A DNA stretch of 64,000 nt from Legionella nautarum (GTDB lineage: Bacteria > Pseudomonadota > Gammaproteobacteria > Legionellales > Legionellaceae). Below are positions 2,011 through 3,916 of this stretch, one piece after another. Position numbers and translations under genes: made by a program. The notes beneath the pieces are model-generated. The model was given only the letters and a program-made list of their open reading frames with translations. It was not told the DNA's origin and made no database searches. Position 1 is the stretch's first letter; every line of letters begins with the position of its first letter. Location of the stretch: the NCBI RefSeq assembly GCF_001467895.1, contig NZ_LNYO01000013.1, positions 901,134 through 965,133 on the forward strand, written 5' to 3'.

Positions 2011-2380
2011 CTGAGGTATCCCCACAAAATGAGTATCTAAGCAATTTGTATTCATTTTATCCCGTTCAACTTCAGGAGCACGCATGGCGTGCGTCCCGAA
2101 GGCTTGTATTTCGATGGAGCCTTTTGCGACACTTCGAGACAGCGCTATGCGCTTCCTCAGTGCGAACGGTACAACAAAAAATAAGTATCTAATGAATTTT
2201 GGATTAATTTTATTCCGTTCAGCCTGAGGAGCACGCATGGCGTGCGTCTCGAAGGCTTGTCTCTCGATGGAGCCTTTTGCGATACTTCGAGACAGCGCTG
2301 CGCGCTTTCTCAGTGCGAACGGGATAAACAAAACGATCAATGAACTAAACAGTCTATTTAATGTCGTGGGAATATCTCAG
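2011..2380 (+). repeat. MITE-like dispersed repeat, copy 1 (duplicated core)
   Basis: The segment begins CTGAGGTATCCCCAC and ends GTGGGAATATCTCAG. These 15-bp ends are inverted repeats with 13 of 15 positions matching. Inside are two consecutive copies of a core that starts CCGTTCA, has the palindrome GCACGCATGGCGTGC, then GCCTTTTGCGA, CTTCGAGACAGCGCT and CAGTGCGAACGG. The right part (AACTAAACAGTCTATTTAATG) also occurs in the copies near 8.4 and 16.6 kb. It contains no transposase gene, so if mobile it would be non-autonomous. Short open frames across it read FALRKRAALSRSVAKG-like peptides in one orientation and are treated as non-coding. Confidence 0.8.
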
Positions 2381-2550: not shown

Positions 2551-2699
2551 AAAGAAAAAACCTCAAGACAGCTGTTCCTGTCTATAGGTTTCGTTTCTGA
2601 GTATGATGACCAAATGGGCCGCGTCCTTGCGGCGGAGCACATCCTTTGTGCTTGTCCCTTAGTATGACGTCCTGTCAGACAATCCTTGTCATCCTTTAT
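2551..2699 (-). ncRNA. Rsm-type CsrA-sequestering small RNA (RsmY/RsmZ-like)
   Basis: Read on the minus strand, about 150 nt hold seven GGA motifs. Five sit in or at the loops of consecutive hairpins: GACAA-GGA-TTGTC (2690-2678), TGAC-AGGAC-GTCA (2677-2665), AGCACA-AAGGA-TGTGCT (2652-2636), CCGC-AAGGAC-GCGG (2632-2619), and the terminator hairpin, which carries ACAGGAAC. Two more are in single-stranded spacers. This is the architecture of RsmY/RsmZ/CsrB RNAs, which titrate CsrA/RsmA through GGA-bearing loops. A -35/-10 pair and a LetA-like box lie just upstream, and a hairpin with a T-tract lies at the end. In Legionella such RNAs are activated by LetA/LetS and release CsrA-repressed transmission genes. 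Ends are estimated from promoter and terminator positions. Whether it corresponds to RsmY or RsmZ cannot be decided here. Confidence 0.82.
2555..2591 (-). terminator. Rho-independent terminator of the Rsm-type RNA
   Basis: On the minus strand, AAACCT-at-AGACAG pairs with CTGTCT-tg-AGGTTT around a GAACAG loop and is followed by TTTTTTCTTTTT. This is a clear intrinsic terminator for the small RNA. The hairpin itself presents an AGGA at the stem-loop boundary. Confidence 0.85.
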
Positions 2700-2705
2700 G
2701 TTATA

Positions 2706-2733
2706 AGTATATCTGGTTTCTGCTAATTGTCAT
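2706..2733 (-). promoter_or_regulatory. Promoter of the Rsm-type RNA
   Basis: On the minus strand, ATGACA (2733-2728) and TATACT (2711-2706) are separated by 16 bp, close to the sigma-70 consensus. The expected start is about 2699, directly ahead of the first GGA motif. Confidence 0.7.
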
Positions 2734-2756
2734 TGCAGGATCAGATGTGCAATATG

Positions 2757-2770
2757 TAAGAGATTTCTCA
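2757..2770 (-). promoter_or_regulatory. LetA-like upstream box
   Basis: TGAGAAATCTCTTA on the minus strand matches the Legionella LetA element TNAGAAATTTCTNA at every specified base but one. Its centre lies about 65 bp upstream of the predicted start of the Rsm-type RNA, where GacA/LetA boxes normally sit. The consensus is recalled from published work on rsmY/rsmZ in L. pneumophila. Confidence 0.75.
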
Positions 2771-2824
2771 AATAAATAGAGGTATTGTCTCTATATTAGG
2801 CATATTTTGCTTGGCAAGCTTAGC

Positions 2825-3670: not shown

Positions 3671-3916
3671 ATGACTAAAAATCATTTATTGCAAGATCCC
3701 TTTCTGAACGAATTGCGCAAAGAAAAAATTCCCGTCTCAGTGTTTTTGGTTAATGGAATCAAATTACACGGCGTGGTCGATTCTTTCGATCAATACGTAG
3801 TGATGCTAAAAAACTCTGTCACACAAATGGTTTATAAGCATGCTATCTCCACCGTAGTTCCTTCACGCATGGTTAAGTTGCCTACTGGTGAGGAGGAGGG
3901 AAATGTGGCAGACTAG
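3671..3916 (+). CDS. hfq: RNA chaperone Hfq
   Basis: An 81-residue Sm-like protein that forms a hexameric ring, binds sRNAs and A-rich mRNA tails, and promotes their pairing. Sm1 ([20 protein letters not shown] and following [12 protein letters not shown]) and Sm2 ([12 protein letters not shown]) are intact, including the Tyr-Lys-His of the uridine-binding pore. The C-terminal tail is short, unlike the longer E. coli tail. AAGGAG sits correctly ahead of ATG. hflX follows after 29 bp, the usual hfq-hflX pairing. With the Rsm-type RNA and 6S RNA in the same window, post-transcriptional regulators are well represented. Confidence 0.97.

What the first reader, a model, noticed from the sequence alone, without database searches (positions are those of the whole stretch)
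2551..2770. Unannotated Rsm-type sRNA with LetA-like box downstream of gyrB
Seen directly: seven GGA motifs in 150 nt, four clean hairpins plus a terminator hairpin presenting GGA at loops, -35/-10 at 16-bp spacing, and a 14-bp element one mismatch from TNAGAAATTTCTNA centred near -65. Known: this layout defines GacA/LetA-controlled RsmY/RsmZ RNAs that titrate CsrA and switch Legionella to its transmissive phase. Its place in a repeat-filled gap makes it easy to miss.
Basis: partly seen in the sequence, partly recalled or inferred. Interest (0 to 1): 0.85.

Follow-up and report, generated by a model that had tools for sequence, protein, structure and literature searches.

The report
Legionella RsmY-type CsrA-sponge small RNA
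This is most likely the local copy of RsmY, a small RNA already known from Legionella pneumophila that is thought to soak up the regulator protein CsrA when the bacterium switches life stage; it is a solid but largely expected find.

Summary
The minus strand carries a LetA/GacA-like box (2770-2757, one mismatch), a sigma-70-like promoter (2733-2706), seven GGA motifs, four GGA-loop hairpins and a terminator hairpin with the seventh GGA. A DNA search finds the element in all 21 other genomes of the genus held (E<=7.1e-9). A covariance model of its 80-nt core, trained partly on the same genomes, matches 129 of 143 Legionellaceae genomes. A box within 2 mismatches was found in 35 of 37 aligned rows. 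gyrB and/or hfq lie beside it in 20 of 30 unnamed and 19 of 22 named loci, which overlap. In the genome that carries published L. pneumophila primers (G128), it lies between gyrB (4th main ORF) and the 5th; hfq is the 9th. Published labels (RsmY = lppnc0001, hfq = lpp0009, a nearby RNA lnc0003) place RsmY there, by inference. So this is an RsmY orthologue, not a new kind of RNA. The genome also has a separate RsmZ-like RNA, CsrA genes and a GacA/LetA-type regulator. Lineage detail: the T run after hairpin 4 is absent and termination appears to use a downstream hairpin. Transcription, LetA binding and CsrA binding were not tested.

The parts
2757..2770 (-). LetA/GacA-type box TGAGAAATCTCTTA, centred about -65
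   Evidence: Read; 1 mismatch to TNAGAAATTTCTNA; best box within 2 mismatches in 35 of 37 aligned rows
2781..2790 (-). Conserved element AGACAATACC just upstream of the box, role unknown
   Evidence: Mean top-base fraction 0.75 against 0.29-0.40 in the four 10-nt blocks further upstream
2706..2733 (-). Sigma-70-like promoter ATGACA-16-TATACT
   Evidence: block 2710-2701 mean top-base fraction 0.74
2555..2698 (-). Predicted RsmY-type transcript, about 144 nt (start and end inferred)
   Evidence: Promoter position and terminator; no transcript data
2618..2697 (-). Conserved 80-nt core (model R1), six GGA
   Evidence: R1 match G000:C13:903751-903830, 101 bits, E 8.8e-32 (this sequence is in the model); alignment A1
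2678..2690 (-). Hairpin 1, GACA-AGGAT-TGTC
   Evidence: 95.1% of cells paired in A1; RNAalifold recovers three of its four pairs
2665..2677 (-). Hairpin 2, TGAC-AGGAC-GTCA
   Evidence: 100% of cells paired in A1; recovered by RNAalifold
2637..2651 (-). Hairpin 3, GCACA-AAGGA-TGTGC
   Evidence: 87.8% of cells paired; folds alone at -6.7 kcal/mol; not recovered by RNAalifold
2618..2633 (-). Hairpin 4, GCCGC-AAGGAC-GCGGC; followed by a T run in many relatives, not here
   Evidence: 97.2% of cells paired, one pair C-G to U-A in 8 of 36 rows; T run after it in 20 of 36 rows, not here
2557..2592 (-). Downstream terminator hairpin with the seventh GGA (2578-2576) in its loop, T run 2560-2555
   Evidence: -17.5 kcal/mol, z -5.15

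Best explanation
It is the RsmY orthologue of a Legionella species near L. drozanskii. LetA (the GacA-type response regulator) is inferred to bind the box at about -65 and switch on the promoter late in growth; the RNA, with six conserved GGA sites and a seventh in its terminator hairpin, binds several CsrA dimers and so frees the mRNAs that CsrA represses. Shown here: the anatomy, its conservation in the family, its place in a genome that carries published L. pneumophila primers, and CsrA and LetA-type genes in the same genome. Inferred: that the L. pneumophila RNA at this place is the one called RsmY, and LetA binding, CsrA binding, growth-phase control and the effect on life-stage switching.
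For: Anatomy. DNA matches in 21 of 21 other genus genomes, E<=7.1e-9. Model R1 in 22 of 22 genus genomes and 129 of 143 family genomes; 21 of those 22 and up to 36 of the 143 supplied training rows. 18 pairs with 94.7% of cells standard-paired against 19-42% in slid controls; C-G to U-A in hairpin 4. Conservation peaks at the box (0.90) and through the GGA hairpins and is low outside. gyrB and/or hfq beside it in 20 of 30 unnamed and 19 of 22 named loci; 13 of the named loci are the same places as unnamed ones. G128 is the only one of 143 genomes with the L. pneumophila Paris hfq primer at <=1 mismatch; it has one gyrB primer exactly, the other with 2 mismatches. Its R1 match 6505-6426 lies between the 4th main ORF (holding the gyrB primers) and the 5th; the 9th main ORF is 85 aa and holds the hfq primer; published hfq is lpp0009, 85 aa (PMC5225317). 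RsmY = lppnc0001 (PMC8828724 Table 1). LetA binds the rsmX, rsmY and rsmZ promoters in L. pneumophila (PMC5928044 passages). CsrA: 4 matches over the cut-off, 3 nearly full-length; GacA/UvrY-type regulator 280.2 bits, cut-off 280.
Against: No transcript, binding or mutant data for this species. No Rfam family reaches its gathering score at the locus (best RsmV 15.9 against 100 bits). The minimum-energy fold does not show hairpins 1 and 2 as drawn. Covariation is thin: 1 of 18 pairs has double changes, and 483 of 500 shuffles reach that number. Ten of 30 unnamed and 3 of 22 named loci showed neither gyrB nor hfq in the stretch held. The predicted length (about 144 nt) exceeds the about 110 nt reported for L. 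pneumophila RsmY (PMC5928044). The place of RsmY in L. pneumophila rests on label order, on taking lnc and lppnc as one series, and on the primer match of G128; I saw no stated coordinate or sequence.
Confidence: 0.92

Rival explanations
1. It is the RsmZ or RsmX orthologue rather than RsmY: same mechanism, different name.
For: All three are LetA-controlled in L. pneumophila (PMC5928044), so anatomy alone does not separate them.
Against: RsmX is reported absent from L. longbeachae, yet the locus is there (L064). A second, different family (5'/3' closing stem, LetA-like box) exists in this genome at C13:387942-388028 and may be RsmZ. RsmY has the first ncRNA label of the Paris strain.
Confidence: 0.05
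2. It is not an independent RNA but the 3' untranslated region or a processing product of the 202-aa gene (3433-2825) upstream on the same strand.
For: The ORF ends about 90 bp upstream of the promoter on the same strand.
Against: A conserved box and -10 lie between ORF and RNA; the ORF was found by tblastn in only 3 of 52 loci (L001, and L. drozanskii twice as L002 and L060), whereas the RNA is family-wide.
Confidence: 0.02
3. It is a chance or degraded copy: a box and GGA cluster without function, perhaps part of the repeats beside gyrB.
For: GGA clusters of this density occur elsewhere in the window, one other box site there is followed by 6 GGA, and a 136-nt direct repeat lies close by at 2045-2333.
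Against: Core conserved in 129 of 143 family genomes; 0 of 78 boxes in shuffles had >=7 GGA; the repeats found do not overlap the RNA.
Confidence: 0.01

Closest known systems
RsmY of Legionella pneumophila (lppnc0001 in strain Paris)
   Same: Place beside gyrB ahead of hfq (inferred from label order and G128), same core with six GGA, same box and promoter layout.
   Different: Here the transcript is predicted to run on to a further hairpin with a seventh GGA; predicted about 144 nt against about 110 nt reported (PMC5928044). G128 also lacks a T run after hairpin 4.
RsmZ of Legionella
   Same: GGA hairpins downstream of a LetA-like box; the best candidate in this genome is at C13:387942-388028.
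   Different: The RsmZ-like RNAs modelled here (R2) are closed by a long 5'/3' stem and lie elsewhere in the genome. The name RsmZ for them is my inference.
RsmY/RsmZ/RsmV of Pseudomonas, CsrB/CsrC of Escherichia (Rfam)
   Same: Same working principle: many GGA in loops, GacA-family control (recalled).
   Different: No Rfam member reaches its gathering score; common ancestry by sequence is not shown.

Membership tests
GacA/LetA-controlled Rsm/Csr sponge RNA | Several GGA motifs, most in hairpin loops | tested here: met
   Seven GGA here; in the 36 rows where hairpin 4 was recognised the core has six in 34 and five in 2; hairpins paired in 87.8-100% of cells
GacA/LetA-controlled Rsm/Csr sponge RNA | GacA/LetA-type palindromic box upstream of the promoter | tested here: met
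   One mismatch here; 35 of 37 rows within 2 mismatches, best of about 100 nt searched
GacA/LetA-controlled Rsm/Csr sponge RNA | Own promoter and intrinsic terminator, intergenic, no long ORF | tested here: met
   (predictions only)
GacA/LetA-controlled Rsm/Csr sponge RNA | CsrA and a GacA/LetA-type regulator in the same genome | tested here: met
   the regulator passes its cut-off by 0.2 bits; the sensor kinase was not sought
GacA/LetA-controlled Rsm/Csr sponge RNA | Binds CsrA; expression depends on LetA/GacA | not testable with these tools
   No binding or expression data
RsmY of Legionella | Orthologous place and sequence to L. pneumophila RsmY | tested here: met
   R1 in G128 beside gyrB; RsmY = lppnc0001. 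Met by inference from label order and primers; no annotated coordinate seen
RsmY of Legionella | Length about 110 nt | tested here: inconclusive
   Predicted about 144 nt; ends not mapped
Rfam RsmY, RsmZ, CsrB and other Rsm/Csr families | Score at or above the gathering cut-off | tested here: not met
   No hit at the locus; RsmV 15.9 against 100 bits; no Rsm/Csr family in L170, L184, L064, L153 or L136 at E<=0.1

The most novel reading that the evidence does not exclude
In the lineage of this genome and L. drozanskii the RsmY 3' end has moved: hairpin 4 is without a T run and serves as a CsrA site only, a downstream hairpin has taken over termination, and in this genome that terminator loop carries a GGA, giving an RNA with one more CsrA site and so a different sponge capacity.
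Probability: 0.4. Interest if true: 0.3.

Novelty: new member of a known kind. Interest (0 to 1): 0.3.

Why it matters
It shows RsmY as a conserved and often syntenic feature of most held Legionellaceae genomes and gives a covariance model for a family that Rfam, as searched here, does not detect. That makes Rsm content countable: each of 22 genus genomes has one strong R1 match, while RNAs matching the RsmZ-like model R2 vary from none found to seven per genome (other forms may be missed). The mechanism itself is known.

Tried and rejected
Rfam scan of the whole window and of the locus: no Rsm family at its cut-off. Exact 12-mer box search for the partner RNA in this genome: five other places fetched, none with more than 2 GGA in the stretch that would hold the RNA. 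Scan of genome contigs with the 202-aa neighbour: nothing. Pattern for a hairpin with GGA in G000 and G006: two places, neither Rsm-like by eye. A weak R1 match at G000:C13:758496-758588 (E 0.0876) was set aside: no box seen upstream by eye. Plasmid collection searched with this RNA and with the L. massiliensis Rsm-like RNA: no match. The order-level search returned the same number of genomes (143) and listed the family again, so it says nothing about other families. Outside the family, the DNA search of 21 class-level relatives gave only short matches, best E 0.007. For alignment A1, 36 of 52 loci were used: 13 were the same sequence seen twice, and 3 (L026, L028, L030) were dropped because their second half has diverged. 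The two models were built largely from the genomes then searched, so their E-values there are not independent; the DNA search is. In G128 the stretch after hairpin 4 does not fold into a clear terminator (z -1.3).

Full report
What is there. On the minus strand, from 2790 down to 2555, the window reads: a conserved AGACAATACC element, the box TGAGAAATCTCTTA (2770-2757), ATGACA-16-TATACT (2733-2706), and an RNA from about 2698 to about 2555 with seven GGA. Hairpins 2690-2678, 2677-2665, 2651-2637 and 2633-2618 each show GGA in the loop; a fifth, 2592-2557, is followed by T at 2560-2555 and has the seventh GGA. A gyrB reading frame (its 5' part lies outside the ORF listed) ends at 1943 on the plus strand, and hfq and hflX follow at 3671 and 3946.

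More than chance. Folding of 2703-2553 has z = -4.7. The GGA count alone is unremarkable, but a box with at most one mismatch followed by >=7 GGA was seen for 0 of 78 boxes in 60 shuffles; 2 of the 78 had >=6, and so has one other box site in the real window. The decisive test is conservation.

Relatives. A DNA search of 56 genomes gave matches at E<=7.1e-9 in all 21 other genomes of the genus. Thirty loci from it and 22 named contigs from a pattern scan gave 52 loci; 36 distinct, full-length rows form alignment A1 (13 repeats and 3 diverged rows dropped). The given structure pairs 94.7% of cells against 19-42% when slid; hairpin 4 has one pair that switches C-G to U-A in 8 of 36 rows; otherwise the sequence is too constant for strong covariation, and 483 of 500 shuffles reach the single doubly changed pair. 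RNAalifold, not told the structure, finds hairpins 1, 2 and 4, not 3. Model R1 finds the RNA in 22 of 22 genomes of the genus (21 of them supplied training rows) and in 129 of 143 genomes of the family at E<=0.01 (up to 36 supplied training rows). By my hand count of that table 102 of 143 have E<=1e-12; the weaker ones may be other Rsm RNAs or partial. Fourteen have none at that threshold.

Promoter. In 37 rows (A1 plus the G128 copy) the best box in about 100 nt has 0, 1, 2 and 3 mismatches in 6, 23, 6 and 2 rows. Conservation by 10-nt blocks is 0.29-0.40 far upstream, 0.75 at AGACAATACC, 0.59 between, 0.90 and 0.78 over the box, 0.55-0.66 down to the promoter's -10, 0.74 at the -10, 0.74-1.00 through the core, and 0.41-0.45 just after it; the last blocks are lowered by the cut ends of the rows.

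Which Rsm RNA. L. pneumophila has RsmX, RsmY and RsmZ, with LetA binding their promoters; RsmX is absent from strain Philadelphia-1 and L. longbeachae (PMC5928044, passages). RsmY is labelled lppnc0001 in strain Paris, in a series that follows chromosome order in the two rows seen that give a place (lppnc0374 antisense to lpp1558, lppnc0692 at lpp2966/67; PMC8828724, Table 1). hfq is lpp0009 and encodes 85 aa, and a cloned region 'including lpp0009 and lnc0003' is named (PMC5225317, passages); that lnc0003 is the hfq antisense RNA and that lnc and lppnc are one series is my inference. So RsmY should lie ahead of hfq, near the origin. G128 is the only one of 143 genomes with the published Paris hfq primer at up to 1 mismatch; one gyrB primer is exact, the other has 2 mismatches. 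There the 4th main ORF holds the gyrB primers, the R1 match follows it, four minus-strand ORFs come next, and the 9th main ORF, 85 aa, holds the hfq primer. The finding is therefore most likely the RsmY orthologue. I did not see a stated coordinate or sequence of RsmY in print.

Partner parts. The genome has CsrA matches over the cut-off at four places, three nearly full-length, one GacA/UvrY-type response regulator at 280.2 bits against a cut-off of 280, and a second Rsm-like RNA at C13:387942-388028 with ATAAGAAATCTCTTGG upstream, of the family with a long closing stem (it is itself a training row of R2). The last is probably RsmZ; the name is inference.

3' end. Of 36 rows with a recognised hairpin 4, 20 have four or more T in a row within 9 nt after it; this genome, L. 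drozanskii and 14 others, the G128 copy among them, do not. Here and in L. drozanskii a downstream hairpin with a T run is present: -17.5 kcal/mol, z -5.2, and -12.9 kcal/mol, z -3.3; of these two, only this genome has GGA in it.

Mechanism. Inferred from L. pneumophila: LetA switches the RNA on, the RNA sequesters CsrA, and CsrA-repressed transmission traits are released (PMC5780407, PMC5338858, passages). Nothing here shows transcription or binding in this species.

Confidence.

Literature limits. Papers were seen as search listings and found passages only (PMC5928044, PMC5338858, PMC3048289, PMC4066749, PMC2824747, PMC8828724, PMC12239595, PMC5780407, PMC5655016, PMC5225317). The 2006 and 2009 papers that described these RNAs are not held. 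Searches for Rsm content in other species (one paper; 12 of 30 papers listed, titles and starts of abstracts) showed no title evidently on this; only those searches stand behind that statement.

Noticed in passing
Several share their downstream flank by eye, which suggests copying together with a neighbouring gene.
   Followed up: partly
No match in the plasmid collection.
   Followed up: partly
window 2781-2790: AGACAATACC is conserved upstream of the LetA box; it may bind a second regulator (recalled: IHF has been linked to rsmY/rsmZ control).
   Followed up: no
window 2045-2333: Two direct copies of a 136-nt repeat between gyrB and the sRNA, 88% alike.
   Followed up: no
window 60535-60693: 6S RNA on the minus strand, 54.2 bits, gathering score 46.4.
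   Followed up: no
L136 2798-2876 (G014:C80): RAGATH-32 motif above its cut-off (and RAGATH-13 below its own) about 1.1 kb downstream of one RsmZ-like copy.
   Followed up: no
L029 (family member G023): Two tandem LetA-like palindromes upstream of its RsmY-type RNA.
   Followed up: no
L144 (G003:C182) and L145 (G010:C285): Further Rsm-like RNAs with box-like palindromes upstream that match neither model well; RsmZ-like content outside the R2 type is therefore under-counted.
   Followed up: no
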